DNA of 51,798 nucleotides, taken from NCBI GenBank assembly GCA_012729505.1, contig JAAYDA010000069.1:1-51798 (forward strand), written 5' to 3'. Source of the stretch: Syntrophomonadaceae bacterium. Its GTDB lineage: Bacteria > Bacillota > Syntrophomonadia > Syntrophomonadales > DTU052. This document shows positions 20,898-25,965 of the stretch, one piece after another; position 1 is the first letter of the stretch, and the number at the start of each line of letters is the position of its first letter. A model generated the notes under the pieces. The model was not told where the DNA came from and ran no database searches. It was given only the letters and a program-made list of their open reading frames with translations. The translations under genes were made by a program, and so were the position numbers.

Positions 20898-20933
20898 TCA
20901 TTTCTATAATGTTTGTTAAAATTAATTTTGATA

Positions 20934-21067
20934 GTGAGGCGTGAGGCGGGAGGCGAAAGGCGAAACGGGGGAACGGGGGAACGGAGACGCGGATATAACA
21001 AGTGAGGCGGGAGGCGGGAGGCGACGGAAAACGGGGAACCGGAGAACGTCAGGAAGTAGGAGAGATT
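20934..21067 (+). repeat. Purine-rich degenerate tandem repeat
   Basis: Repeated GAGGCG/GGGAGGCG and GGGGGAACG units, e.g. GTGAGGCGGGAGGCG seen near 20941 and again near 21001. The composition is unlike the flanks: almost no C or T on the plus strand. It lies between repeat copy B and the helicase-like gene and can be read as its N-terminus, but probably is not coding. Confidence 0.6.
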
Positions 21068-21090
21068 TGGTTCCCGCCTGGACCAGGAGG

Positions 21091-23049
21091 TTGATTTACA
21101 TAGAGAATATTCTTTACTATGGGAATGCCCTGACCGGGAAAACAACTAAATTGATAGCTCATTATCGGGATTTAACCGAAAAGGGGTTAAAAACTGATTC
21201 TATTCTGGTGCTGGTTCAGGATGGCAGAGAGATTACCAGATGGAGAGAGCATCTCTTGAAAGCATTACCGATAGCCGGTTCTTTGCAGGTCTTCTCCTAT
21301 TGGGGATTTGTTCAATCGGAGGTGGCACGCCATTGGAATTGGGCCGAAAAAGAGCTGTACGGTTCCCTCGCCAGTGTAAGACCATCCTTTATTACGGCAG
21401 AAATTGCCCATTTCTTGATCACAATTATGGTGAATGACCACCGGATGAAAGGAAAAATGAATACGGTAGCTACCCCGGAGCAGATGGCGATTCAAATTCT
21501 TAATAATATGAATTTGGCCGCGACTTTCGGGATGAAATTAGACGAAGCCTTTTTGAGAGTGCAGAGTGTGGAGACAGATCCGGCCAGAAGAATTGTTATA
21601 GGAGAAGCACTGGCGGTGGCCCGGGGGTTCCGAAAGACATGTGTCGAATCCCGGAGTTTCGATTACAGTATGGCGGTGGAAATTTTCAACACCATACTTT
21701 TGCGAGACAGCAGATATCGGGAGATGCTGTCTAAACGATTTAAGGTTCTCATCGCAGATAACCTTGAAGAGGGAGTCCCCAGCCAAACTGATTTGGTCGA
21801 GCTGATGCTGCAAAGCTGCAGATCTTTTGCGGTCTTTGACCCCGACGGAGGGCATACCGATTTTTTTGGGGCTGATCCTGATTACGCCTGGGATAAGCTG
21901 CACTCCCTTTATAAAATAGAAAGATGCCTGCTAAACCCGAACACAATTCTGGCAGATACTGTGGCAAGCAACATCAAGAACGGTCTTACTCTTGAGACAT
22001 GCTCAGTTGAAAAACCGCTGATAAAATTGATTGATATGGATTATCGCAGTGAGCTGATCCTTAGTCTCGCCGAACATATAGAGAAATTAAATTCTCAAGG
22101 ATGCTCTTTGGATGAAATAGCGATAATTGCTCCGGTTATCGACCGGGTTTTGGAGGTATCTTTAAAAACTCTTCTTAAATCAAAACACATTCAGGTGCAG
22201 CTGTTAAACCGCCGTGAATATTTAGCTGACAAGGAATTCGCTCAGGTGATGGTGGTTTTGGTTTCGTTGATTGAGAAAAGTCCTCTGGCAGTTTCAGAAC
22301 TGGCTCAAGCATTCAAGATCATCCTGGGATTAGATCCGGTTAGAAGCAATCTGCTGGCCAAATTCAGTAACTCTAAAGGTCTTGAAGCAGCACTCCCTGC
22401 TGATTTAATTGGAAGGATCGGATTTGCCGCCAACAATCGTTACCGGGAGTTCTGCGATTGGATTATTGCCAAACGTAATTTATCGGCTGATGCCAGTATT
22501 TTTCAGCAGCTTTTCGGCGAAGTAATGGCAGGTCTGGTCCGTGAAGAGGGGGATCTTTCAGCCTCAAGACAGCTGATTCAATCTGCTGTTTCTTTTGAAA
22601 AATCCCAGGGAAAAATTGATTTGCTTAAGGGTATGTCCTTTGTTGAAGGCTTTGCAAACATGATCAGACAAGGTACTATTGCTGCGGAAGCCGGGAAGAT
22701 TCAGGGGGCGGAGAATAATGGAGTGGTCTTAGCCACACCTCTGGCCATTTTTAAATCAAGCCGTTCCTTTAAATATCAGTTCTGGGTGGATGGCTCCAGT
22801 GAATCATGGACCCCCAGGAGAGCCAGGGAGATAAACAATTATCATCTTATGTCCAAAGGCTGGAATGGCAGGTGGGATGACTCGATGGATATAGTAAAAA
22901 AAGCTGAGGGTGCTGCTAAGACCGTCTCCGGATTGATACTAAGGTGTACTGGGGAAATTGTTTTACTGGTCAGTGAATATAACAGTATGGGACAGGAGCA
23001 GGAGGGTGATCTTCCTGATATTATCAGGGGGAGTGTTGGTCAAGTATGA
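21091..23049 (+). CDS. Degenerate UvrD/AddB-like ATPase subunit
   Basis: About 652 residues, the first of three overlapping genes that together look like a split AddAB recombination complex. The N-terminal P-loop GNALTGKTT (11-19) and a motif II-like LIADNLEEGVPSQ (aspartate near 223) follow the layout of a superfamily 1 helicase, but motif II departs from DExQ. AddB subunits are likewise degenerate helicases that scan for Chi, so an AddB-like role without its own nuclease is proposed (inference). The frame is open back to a GTG at 20941 through a purine-rich repeat and is unlikely to be coding there. A TTG at 21091 directly after AGGAGG is the working start; the true one may be a few codons downstream. 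Confidence 0.65.
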   Translation: MIYIENILYYGNALTGKTTKLIAHYRDLTEKGLKTDSILVLVQDGREITRWREHLLKALPIAGSLQVFSYWGFVQSEVARHWNWAEKELYGSLASVRPSFITAEIAHFLITIMVNDHRMKGKMNTVATPEQMAIQILNNMNLAATFGMKLDEAFLRVQSVETDPARRIVIGEALAVARGFRKTCVESRSFDYSMAVEIFNTILLRDSRYREMLSKRFKVLIADNLEEGVPSQTDLVELMLQSCRSFAVFDPDGGHTDFFGADPDYAWDKLHSLYKIERCLLNPNTILADTVASNIKNGLTLETCSVEKPLIKLIDMDYRSELILSLAEHIEKLNSQGCSLDEIAIIAPVIDRVLEVSLKTLLKSKHIQVQLLNRREYLADKEFAQVMVVLVSLIEKSPLAVSELAQAFKIILGLDPVRSNLLAKFSNSKGLEAALPADLIGRIGFAANNRYREFCDWIIAKRNLSADASIFQQLFGEVMAGLVREEGDLSASRQLIQSAVSFEKSQGKIDLLKGMSFVEGFANMIRQGTIAAEAGKIQGAENNGVVLATPLAIFKSSRSFKYQFWVDGSSESWTPRRAREINNYHLMSKGWNGRWDDSMDIVKKAEGAAKTVSGLILRCTGEIVLLVSEYNSMGQEQEGDLPDIIRGSVGQV

Positions 23050-25226
23050 TTTCATTAAGGCCGGGGCAAGTGGAGGTTTCTCAGTATCAGAGCGGTGTGC
23101 TGGCAGTTCCTGCTGTACCGGGTGCAGGCAAAACTACTTGTCTTTGCCACCTGGCATGCAACCTGATAGCTAATGATTTGGGGCCGGGGAAGAAGATACT
23201 GATTGTTACGGTTATGAATTCGGCGGTATCTAATTTCAGGCATAAAATGCGAAATCTTTTGCAGGAACAGGGGATTCAAGCCAAAGGATATGAAGTAAAA
23301 ACCCTTCATTCGTTAGGGCTTTTAATACTAAAACAGAAGCCGGAAAAGGTATTGGTCAACAGTGCCTTTGACATTCTTACCGGAGATGACAGGATTGGCA
23401 TCATTAATGGATTAACAGACCGGTGGATCAGCTCAAACCGGGATAGATGGCAGCCATACCTTAAGCTTTCTTCTGATGACAGATGGTATCAAAGGGGCGT
23501 CAATTCGTGGATTTCCGGCATTAAAGATATGGTGAACTCCACTATCACCCGGATTAAGCTGCAAGGATTCTCTGTTCAGGAACAAGAGGGGATTCAACAG
23601 AGAGTGCTTTCAGGAGAGGATTCATTTCTGAAATGGGCCTTCGAAATTATGATGGAGTATGACCGTTACATAAGAAACATGGGGCGGGTTGATTTTGACG
23701 ATTTAATTGTTTTTGCCTATCGTCTTCTTCTGGATGATATGGAATTGAGACAGAGAATGCAGGAGCGGTGGGCTTATGTATTTGAAGATGAGGCCCAGGA
23801 TTCCACTCCTTTGCAGGAAAAACTGGTTAGGATATTGAGTGAGAAGTCCGGCAACCTCTTAAGGGTGGGTGACATTAATCAAGGCATAATGGGCTTTACC
23901 GGTACTGATCCATCTCTTTTTTCTCGCTTTTGCAGTGAAGCCGCGAACCAGCCCATCTCTGTTGCGAGCCGAAGCACCCAGGATATTATGGATTTTGCCA
24001 ATCATTTTGTGGGTTGGGTAAGGGGTTCTTTTCCCCTTGAAGCCTGCCGCAATGCCTTGGCTGATCAGCAGATAAGGGGAACATACGGGGATGACCCTTT
24101 TCCTAATCCTGTTGTTGATGGCTTCGCTTTAACTGTTCATGATTATGAAACCGGTGATGAAGAATTAAATGCAATAGCTCATAAAGCAGCTGTGGCTGCT
24201 AAAATGTTTCCTCACCAGACTATTGCCGTATTGACCAGGGACAACTGGTCCCTCAACGGACTGGCAAAGCGTCTTGCTGAGCTGAAAGTACCCTGGGAGG
24301 ATGTTTCGCGCGGGACAACAGCTGACCAGCAAAGCCTGGAGGATGTTCAGACCATAGTTTCTTTTCTGGCAGAACCGGATAACGAAGTGCGGTTTCGTGA
24401 GTTGGCGGAAAGGTTTATGGCCGGACTTGATCCTGACGAATTAGATCTGCTGAATAATTACCTTAAAGAACGGAATCCGGAAGATCTTTTATATCCGATC
24501 GATGGGTTTGAAATAGGCAGCATTCCGGAGGAGCTATGGGCTTCAGGTTCATGGAACAAGGTTGAGGAGCTATTATTTGATTTAAGAAGATGGCTGGAAT
24601 ATTCACATCTTCCCGCCGATGATCTGATCCTCCAGTTGGCTGGAGAGATGGCACTGGATAAAGAACAGCGCGAGCTGGTTAACAGCTATGCCGGTCAGAT
24701 TTCCCGGTTGCTGAGTGATGGCCCACACCACGATTTATTTTCGGTGACTCAAGCTCAGGAGCTGGATAGAAACATGAAACTGGTTATTCGCAATTTAAGG
24801 GACAGAAAAGGTTATTCTCCTAAACCTGGAACAGTTTCTTTATCCACTATGCATCGTTCGAAAGGGTTGGAGTGGGATATTGTATATCTGACAGGACTGG
24901 CGGTTGACCATTTCCCTGATTCACTTAACCAACGTTTCCCCGGGGATATTTGGTCGGTAAAGGAGGAGTTTCGTAATCCGTCTGCACTGGCATTGGCTCA
25001 GTTAAATGCGGCGGAGGCAGGAACCGGATTGGATCCGGGAGAAATAGCTGTTGAGGCTAAGATTCAGGAAATATCCGAAAATCTTAGAGTAATTTATGTG
25101 GCTATAACCCGCGCCCGGGAGAGATTAATTATTTCTTCGCATAAAAAAAATACCTACAATAAGGTGTTGGAGTCCAGCAGTATTTTTACGGAGATAGCAG
25201 CTTATGTTAAACAGAATTCTAAGTAG
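23046..25226 (+). CDS. UvrD/AddA-like superfamily 1 DNA helicase
   Basis: A 726-residue ATP-dependent 3'-5' helicase. All main motifs are visible: AVPGAGKTT (Walker A, about 22-31), FEDEAQDSTPLQ (motif II, about 247), LLRVGDINQGIMGFTG (motif III), STMHRSKGLEWDIVYLTGL (motif V) and YVAITRARERL (motif VI). It has no C-terminal nuclease domain, unlike AddA or RecB. The start overlaps the end of the upstream gene by 4 bases, and its end overlaps the next gene by 23, so the three are translationally coupled. It likely powers unwinding of broken DNA ends in a complex with its neighbours. Confidence 0.9.
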   Translation: MISLRPGQVEVSQYQSGVLAVPAVPGAGKTTCLCHLACNLIANDLGPGKKILIVTVMNSAVSNFRHKMRNLLQEQGIQAKGYEVKTLHSLGLLILKQKPEKVLVNSAFDILTGDDRIGIINGLTDRWISSNRDRWQPYLKLSSDDRWYQRGVNSWISGIKDMVNSTITRIKLQGFSVQEQEGIQQRVLSGEDSFLKWAFEIMMEYDRYIRNMGRVDFDDLIVFAYRLLLDDMELRQRMQERWAYVFEDEAQDSTPLQEKLVRILSEKSGNLLRVGDINQGIMGFTGTDPSLFSRFCSEAANQPISVASRSTQDIMDFANHFVGWVRGSFPLEACRNALADQQIRGTYGDDPFPNPVVDGFALTVHDYETGDEELNAIAHKAAVAAKMFPHQTIAVLTRDNWSLNGLAKRLAELKVPWEDVSRGTTADQQSLEDVQTIVSFLAEPDNEVRFRELAERFMAGLDPDELDLLNNYLKERNPEDLLYPIDGFEIGSIPEELWASGSWNKVEELLFDLRRWLEYSHLPADDLILQLAGEMALDKEQRELVNSYAGQISRLLSDGPHHDLFSVTQAQELDRNMKLVIRNLRDRKGYSPKPGTVSLSTMHRSKGLEWDIVYLTGLAVDHFPDSLNQRFPGDIWSVKEEFRNPSALALAQLNAAEAGTGLDPGEIAVEAKIQEISENLRVIYVAITRARERLIISSHKKNTYNKVLESSSIFTEIAAYVKQNSK

Positions 25227-25965
25227 ATTGAGTTTCAGCCAATTGTCATTCTCTACGTATATGGCATGTCAGCTCAAGTTCAGACGGAGATATGTGGAAC
25301 AATTGTATTGGCCTCAAGTGATGTCTGAGGAAGTGGAATTGGGTCAAGCCTTTCACACCTTGAGTGAAAGGTATTATCTCACCGGAGAGATGGATAACTA
25401 TCCGGGCCTCCTGGGGCAATGGGGGAGGAACCTTAAAGAATTTTATCCTTATGACAGCTCATTGGAGATTTTTCCGGAGCAGCAGGTGAGATTTAATGGT
25501 GACATTCGCCTGGTTGCAAAGTATGATTTATTGGTTAATGGTGAGAAGCTGTTGATCTATGATTGGAAAACCACCAAGAAAATCAAGCGAAGCTATTATG
25601 AAAACTCTCTGCAGACTTTGCTCTACCGCTATCTTATGGCAGAAGCGGGAGGGGAATACCTGGGCAGAATCATAAAGCCCCGCGATATTATAATGTGCTA
25701 TTGGAATCCGTCTTTTCCCCGGGAACCCCTATACTTGCCATATGATGAGATCAAATATAGACGGGATGGGAAATTCCTGCGGGATATTATAAATGAGATT
25801 ATGCAAAAGCCTTGGGATGAATTTTTCCCTGTGACTGATGAACGAATATGTTCTTATTGTGAGTATTCTCCAATTTGTCACGGCAAGCCTGGGGAAGGGG
25901 AGACGGATTTTGATGCCGAGGATCTTTCGCTATCCTGGGATGATATAGACGAGTTTCTCGTTTAA
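25204..25965 (+). CDS. Stand-alone RecB/AddB-type PD-(D/E)XK nuclease with 4Fe-4S cluster
   Basis: A 253-residue nuclease. The catalytic set is His51 (GQAFHTLSERY), Asp108 (KYDLL) and Asp120 with Lys122 (IYDWKTTKK). Four cysteines, C22, C216, C219 and C225, form the C-Xn-C-X2-C-X5-C pattern that binds a 4Fe-4S cluster in the AddB nuclease domain and Cas4. In AddAB this domain is fused to the helicase subunit; here it is its own gene, overlapping the helicase gene by 23 bases. It probably cuts single strands as they leave the helicase. No cas genes are nearby, so a Cas4 role is unlikely. Confidence 0.88.
   Translation: MLNRILSRLSFSQLSFSTYMACQLKFRRRYVEQLYWPQVMSEEVELGQAFHTLSERYYLTGEMDNYPGLLGQWGRNLKEFYPYDSSLEIFPEQQVRFNGDIRLVAKYDLLVNGEKLLIYDWKTTKKIKRSYYENSLQTLLYRYLMAEAGGEYLGRIIKPRDIIMCYWNPSFPREPLYLPYDEIKYRRDGKFLRDIINEIMQKPWDEFFPVTDERICSYCEYSPICHGKPGEGETDFDAEDLSLSWDDIDEFLV

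What the first reader, a model, noticed from the sequence alone, without database searches (positions are those of the whole stretch)
21091..25965. Three-gene split of an AddAB-like helicase-nuclease, followed by recJ
A degenerate P-loop ATPase, a full UvrD-type helicase and a free PD-(D/E)XK nuclease with the AddB-type 4Fe-4S cysteines overlap one another, with recJ 11 bases behind. In standard AddAB both nuclease domains are fused to the helicase subunits. Here the only nuclease is a separate protein, so strand cutting and end recognition may differ.
Basis: partly seen in the sequence, partly recalled or inferred. Interest (0 to 1): 0.6.

Follow-up and report, generated by a model that had tools for sequence, protein, structure and literature searches.

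The report
Four-gene DNA helicase-nuclease module with RecJ
The bacterium carries, besides its normal DNA-break-processing enzyme, a second, separately encoded and widely conserved set of four genes (a dead helicase, a live helicase, an iron-sulphur nuclease and a dedicated copy of the exonuclease RecJ) that probably work together to unwind and trim DNA, and that nobody seems to have described as one system.

Summary
Three overlapping genes (21091-25965) encode a degenerate SF1 helicase, an intact UvrD-type helicase and a free AddB-type Fe-S PD-(D/E)XK nuclease, with recJ 11 bases behind.

The interpretation "three-gene split of AddAB" is not right as stated. The same genome holds an ordinary fused AddA-AddB pair on another contig. 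Of the 27 genomes with gene 1 in a 398-genome phylum sample, most also have AddAB, and AddB absence is no commoner among trio genomes than among the rest (2 of 14 against 19 of 185). Only one nearly complete genus has the trio and no AddAB.

The real unit has four genes. The neighbouring recJ is a second RecJ paralogue that forms its own well-supported clade, apart from the housekeeping RecJ of the same genomes. The order gene1-helicase-nuclease-recJ recurs in about 24 genomes spread over most of the 17 Bacillota families found, and on a Salinibacter plasmid (Rhodothermota). Catalytic residues of helicase and nuclease are invariant, while gene 1 keeps only Walker A.

Hudaiberdiev et al. 2017 noted an unfused UvrD + Cas4-like operon in Clostridiales; I found no description of gene 1 or the RecJ link.

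Best reading: a parallel DNA-end processing machine of AddAB/AdnAB design, in pieces, with its own 5'-3' exonuclease. Biological role undecided.

The parts
21091..23049 (+). gene 1: degenerate SF1 (UvrD-like) helicase, 652 aa; Walker A kept, catalytic motifs lost; proposed inert arm or scaffold. Start codon uncertain (TTG 21091 directly behind AGGAGG; a GTG at 20941 also opens the frame but lies in repeat DNA)
23046..25226 (+). gene 2: SF1A UvrD-type helicase, 726 aa, all motif residues checked are invariant, no nuclease domain; proposed 3'-5' motor
25204..25965 (+). gene 3: free PD-(D/E)XK (RecB/Cas4/AddB-type) nuclease, 253 aa; active site H51, D108, D120, K122, Q137, Y141; Fe-S cysteines C22, C216, C219, C225
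25977..28208 (+). gene 4: RecJ paralogue (743 aa) of a clade specific to this operon; DHH, DHHA1 and RecJ_OB domains intact; a different, longer RecJ is elsewhere in the genome (contig C80)

Best explanation
The locus encodes a conserved four-component DNA-processing module that runs alongside AddAB and does not replace it. Gene 2 is the motor, an active 3'-5' SF1A helicase. Gene 1 is its catalytically dead paralogue, which may still bind ATP and probably serves as a scaffold or DNA-end/strand-holding arm, as AddB, RecC and AdnA do in their complexes. Gene 3 is the Fe-S PD-(D/E)XK nuclease, probably docked on gene 1 or 2, cutting single strands released by the motor. The dedicated RecJ paralogue degrades the 5'-ended strand. 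The net result would be resection or complete degradation of a DNA end, gap or reversed fork. Shown by sequence: families, intact and lost motifs, conserved operon, RecJ clade, coexistence with AddAB. Inferred: physical complex, polarity, substrate, and a role in recombinational repair or clearance of damaged DNA.
For: The order gene1-gene2-gene3-recJ on one strand, overlapping or adjacent, recurs in about 24 Bacillota genomes, while flanking genes are varied housekeeping genes. All four also lie on Salinibacter ruber plasmid pSR56, with strong profile scores for the trio (413/581/163 bits). The operon RecJ clade has 100/100 support and is apart from housekeeping RecJs of the same genomes. Distances of gene 1, gene 2 and operon RecJ correlate at 0.90-0.92, against 0.75-0.84 for genes 1 and 2 with housekeeping RecJ. 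Catalytic residues of motor and nuclease are invariant, and gene 1 is degenerate in a consistent way. Profile matches are to PcrA, AddA, AdnB and RecB (gene 2), PcrA and AdnA (gene 1) and the AddB nuclease (gene 3). Hudaiberdiev et al. 2017 (PMC5704561) proposed DNA repair for an unfused UvrD/Cas4-like operon in Clostridiales.
Against: No experiment or structure shows a complex. Single-sequence AlphaFold models were useless (pLDDT 33 and 35). Distance correlations do not separate co-evolution from shared ancestry well, since housekeeping RecJ also correlates, and gene 3 correlates less. Patchy distribution (27 of 398 genomes, 2 of 61 close relatives) is unlike core repair genes. Two trio genomes (G104, G396) lack recJ next door, and a solo gene 1 occurs in Ilyobacter.
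Confidence: 0.6

Rival explanations
1. Defence or uptake control: the module degrades incoming plasmid, phage or transforming DNA, and repair is secondary.
For: In Synechococcus elongatus, loss of uvrD, recJcy (a second RecJ), cas4 and Synpcc7942_0992 (a PD-(D/E)XK protein) each raises RSF1010 maintenance and natural transformation (PMC10653904): the same three enzyme types giving one phenotype. Patchy distribution and a plasmid-borne copy fit.
Against: I could not test whether those cyanobacterial proteins are orthologues. PADLOC finds only generic GajB and Cas4 similarity. Neighbours are housekeeping genes. No true members in 50,697 phage records or viral contigs.
Confidence: 0.22
2. Split AddAB: a three-polypeptide form of AddAB that does AddAB's job.
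For: AddB-type Fe-S nuclease; gene 1 aligns with the AddB N-terminus; one nearly complete genus (G064, G110) has the trio and no AddA or AddB.
Against: Fused AddAB in the same genome. AddB absence is not linked to trio presence: 2/14 against 19/185, Fisher p = 0.65. Gene 1 is equally close to UvrD-type proteins, and no AddB model matches it.
Confidence: 0.08
3. Four separately acting repair proteins that share an operon for co-expression only, without a complex: RecJ with a helicase partner for gap or mismatch repair, and the nuclease acting elsewhere.
For: RecJ normally works with a separate helicase such as RecQ or UvrD (established knowledge); two trio genomes lack the adjacent recJ.
Against: Overlapping reading frames, fixed order across families and a phylum boundary, and consistent loss of gene 1 catalysis argue for a structural partner.
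Confidence: 0.1

Closest known systems
AddAB (RexAB) helicase-nuclease
   Same: One active SF1A motor, one degenerate SF1 partner, and an Fe-S PD-(D/E)XK nuclease of AddB type
   Different: Nuclease is free; the motor has no nuclease domain; gene 1 is not matched by AddB models; linked to a dedicated RecJ; coexists with true AddAB
AdnAB of mycobacteria
   Same: Two UvrD-like subunits, one of them degenerate; the gene 1 profile matches AdnA (6ppj_A, E 3.5e-4) and the gene 2 profile matches AdnB
   Different: In AdnAB each subunit carries its own nuclease domain (established knowledge)
Unfused UvrD + Cas4-like operon of Clostridiales (Hudaiberdiev et al. 2017, PMC5704561)
   Same: Very probably the gene 2-gene 3 pair; a DNA-repair role was suggested there
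   Different: The text does not mention the degenerate partner or RecJ; which loci the figure shows could not be checked
S. elongatus UvrD / RecJcy / PD-(D/E)XK functional set (PMC10653904)
   Same: Same three enzyme types, including a second RecJ, with one shared phenotype
   Different: Not described as an operon; orthology untested; acts in a background with Argonaute
Gabija GajB helicases
   Same: Generic SF1A similarity
   Different: No GajA partner here; the weak gene 1 hits in G406, G432 and G394 lie in real Gabija loci

Membership tests
AddAB | AddA: SF1A motor fused to a C-terminal RecB-type nuclease | tested here: not met
   Gene 2 (726 aa) ends about 40 residues after motif VI and has no PDDEXK match
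AddAB | AddB: degenerate SF1 protein fused to an Fe-S PD-(D/E)XK nuclease, recognisable by AddB models | tested here: not met
   Gene 1 has no AddB or ADDB_N match and no nuclease; hhalign to the AddB N-terminus E 4.8e-13, but an equal or better match to UvrD-type and AddA profiles
AddAB | AddB-type nuclease with four Fe-S cysteines | tested here: met
   Present on the separate gene 3, 24/24 relatives
AddAB | Chi recognition, dual-strand resection, RecA-dependent repair | not testable with these tools
   needs biochemistry
AdnAB | Both subunits carry motor and nuclease domains | tested here: not met
   No nuclease on gene 1 or gene 2
RecBCD | RecB with nuclease, RecC, and the 5'-3' motor RecD | tested here: not met
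   No RecC or RecD model match worth noting among the trio
Cas4 | Cas4 model above its curated cut-off, CRISPR context | tested here: not met
   TIGR00372 15 bits against a cut-off of 65; best other member E 2.6e-8; no cas genes in the operon
RecJ | DHH, DHHA1 and OB domains over the family cut-off | tested here: met
   TIGR00644 487 bits, cut-off 397; DHH and GGH motifs present
Gabija | GajA OLD-type nuclease next to GajB | tested here: not met
   No GajA in the operon

The most novel reading that the evidence does not exclude
A further architectural class of bacterial DNA-end processing machine, next to RecBCD, AddAB and AdnAB: a multi-subunit assembly of dead SF1 arm, SF1A motor and Fe-S nuclease, with a dedicated RecJ supplying the second strand's exonuclease. 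In lineages such as the G064/G110 genus it could be the 'still-unknown presynaptic mechanism' postulated by Rocha et al. 2005 (PMC1193525).
Probability: 0.3. Interest if true: 0.8.

Novelty: new variant of a known kind. Interest (0 to 1): 0.52.

Why it matters
Bacterial DNA-end resection is taught as three machines (RecBCD, AddAB, AdnAB). A conserved four-gene module of the same kinds of parts, but unfused and with its own RecJ, would show how such machines are assembled or taken apart in evolution. It could explain recombination or DNA clearance in genomes without the known systems, and it makes a testable prediction about the unexplained UvrD/RecJcy/PD-(D/E)XK phenotype in cyanobacteria.

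Tried and rejected
1) Replacement of AddAB: rejected for this genome (fused AddAB on C20) and in general (Fisher p = 0.65); kept only as a possibility for the G064/G110 genus. TIGR02785 alone looked like mutual exclusion (1 of 27 trio genomes over its cut-off), but this was an artefact of divergent AddA sequences: PF12705 and home-made AddA/AddB profiles found AddAB in most of them.
2) Phage or mobile origin: no phage hits; viral-contig matches are generic UvrD without the nuclease of this family.
3) Known defence system: PADLOC gives only weak GajB/Cas4 similarity; weak gene 1 hits in other genomes were Gabija or other SF1 helicases.
4) A fifth conserved gene: neighbour clustering found only lineage-specific housekeeping genes.
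5) Structure: single-sequence AlphaFold failed (pLDDT 33 and 35); no fold search was run because a match would be meaningless, and the relatives fetched by the genome search are not among the sequences that structure prediction admits.
6) A related-loci scan of genome contigs with gene 3 returned only a spurious locus (L008).
7) A search of cyanobacterial genomes was not possible ('of' accepts only genome handles).
8) PDB 9iab, the best PDB match of gene 3, turned out to belong to a PD-(D/E)XK family found next to a Piwi gene in Nostoc, so it is a distant relative.

Full report
What is there. Three overlapping genes at 21091-25965 (+) encode a 652-aa degenerate SF1 protein, a 726-aa UvrD-type helicase and a 253-aa PD-(D/E)XK protein, and recJ (743 aa) starts 11 bases later. 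The start of gene 1 is uncertain: AGGAGG abuts the TTG, and the region upstream is repeat DNA.

Is it real? A search of 398 genomes of the phylum found gene 1 relatives in 27 genomes of 17 families with full-length or strong matches, plus a few weak SF1 hits. In the 60 nearest relatives only one further genome had it (G003), so distribution is patchy. Neighbourhoods were fetched and mapped. The order gene1-helicase-nuclease-recJ, on one strand with short gaps or overlaps, recurs in about 24 of the 27 or so trio loci. The exceptions are G104 and G396 (no recJ next door) and contigs that end there. Outside the four genes nothing is conserved between families.

Anatomy. In 24 gene 1 sequences Walker A is kept (K in 23/24) and the motif II aspartate is invariant. 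The catalytic glutamate after it is D or N in 23 of 24, the motif III Gln is replaced by Gly in nearly all, and motifs V and VI are unrecognisable. In 23 helicases all motif residues checked are invariant. In 24 nucleases the RecB-type active site (H51, D108, D120, K122, Q137, Y141) and the four cysteines (22, 216, 219, 225) are invariant. The gene 1 profile matches PcrA (E 4e-9) and AdnA (3.5e-4) among solved structures but not AddB. By hhalign it aligns over 602 columns with its own partner helicase (E 2.8e-15), over 392 with AddA (7e-16) and over 333 with the AddB N-terminus (5e-13). It is thus a dead SF1 paralogue of no clearly closer affinity to AddB. The nuclease aligns with the AddB C-terminal nuclease including all cysteines (E 3e-13).

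Is it AddAB in pieces? No, not in this genome. Contig C20 carries a fused AddB (1005 aa) and AddA (1082 aa), both with PD-(D/E)XK domains, AddB with its four invariant cysteines. Fused AddAB was found in most other trio genomes. Among 199 genomes at least 95% complete, AddB is missing in 2 of 14 with the trio and 19 of 185 without it (Fisher p = 0.65). The two are G064 and G110, one genus, 99% complete, G110 in 2 contigs. They have no AddA or AddB by three searches; there the trio is the only candidate of this kind. Five further genomes (G003, G148, G178, G333, G425; 80-94% complete) also gave none, or only a fragment, and are inconclusive.

RecJ is a part. Most trio genomes have two RecJs; the own genome has one in the window and a longer one on C80. 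In a maximum-likelihood tree the 20 Bacillota operon RecJs, the Salinibacter plasmid RecJ and the sole RecJ of G104 form one clade (100/100) apart from the 19 other housekeeping RecJs. G104 is telling: its trio has no adjacent recJ, yet the genome's only RecJ belongs to the operon lineage. The Salinibacter ruber plasmid pSR56, in another phylum, carries all four genes in the same order.

How it probably works. Gene 2 translocates 3'-5' and unwinds; gene 1 is the inert arm that holds the complex or one strand; gene 3 cuts unwound strands; RecJ removes the 5' strand. This is inference from the known workings of AddAB, AdnAB and RecJ. Whether the purpose is recombinational repair or clearing incoming DNA is open. 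For repair: housekeeping context, conserved chromosomal operon, and the suggestion of Hudaiberdiev et al. 2017 for an unfused UvrD/Cas4-like operon in Clostridiales (PMC5704561). For incoming DNA: in S. elongatus, mutants in uvrD, recJcy, cas4 and a PD-(D/E)XK gene share raised plasmid maintenance and transformation (PMC10653904). I could not test orthology with those genes, so this is a lead only.

Novelty. The gene 2/gene 3 pair was noticed in 2017. In the open literature searched here I found no description of the degenerate partner, the RecJ paralogue or the four-gene unit. Subscription-only papers and preprints were not searchable. I rate it a new variant of a known kind: AddAB/AdnAB-type parts in a different arrangement.

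Limits. No structure, no biochemistry. Single-sequence models failed. Only one phylum could be surveyed, with plasmids giving Rhodothermota and a solo gene 1 in Fusobacteriota.

Noticed in passing
window 20930-21085: Purine-rich repeat (GAGGCGGGAGGCG / CGGGGGAACGG) directly upstream of gene 1; parts of it match 36 other places in the same genome, so it is a dispersed repeat.
   Followed up: partly
L092:7983-9956 (Ilyobacter polytropus pILYOP01): A full-length gene 1 relative (425 bits to profile A1) without the helicase, nuclease or recJ nearby: gene 1 can stand alone in Fusobacteriota.
   Followed up: partly
L164:5653-8705 (Nostoc sp. CENA543 plasmid pCENA543b): PD-(D/E)XK nuclease overlapping a Piwi/Argonaute gene, the same family as PDB 9iab; distantly related to gene 3.
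   Followed up: partly
L076, L077, L078, L079, L080, L086: AddB in G139, G280, G326, G410, G232 and G390 is short (about 855-897 aa against about 1005-1160), next to a normal-length AddA.
   Followed up: no
L072 and L089 (G142): One genome carries at least two AddA genes with AddB partners besides the trio.
   Followed up: no
L059, L062, L064: Gabija loci (GajA E < 1e-200 next to a UvrD-like helicase) turned up as weak gene 1 hits. L061 and L063 have similar helicase + about 660-aa pairs with no PADLOC match.
   Followed up: partly
L009:2750-7875 (G003), L068 (G425): In these relatives helicase, recJ or gene 1 are split into two reading frames, either draft errors or decay.
   Followed up: no
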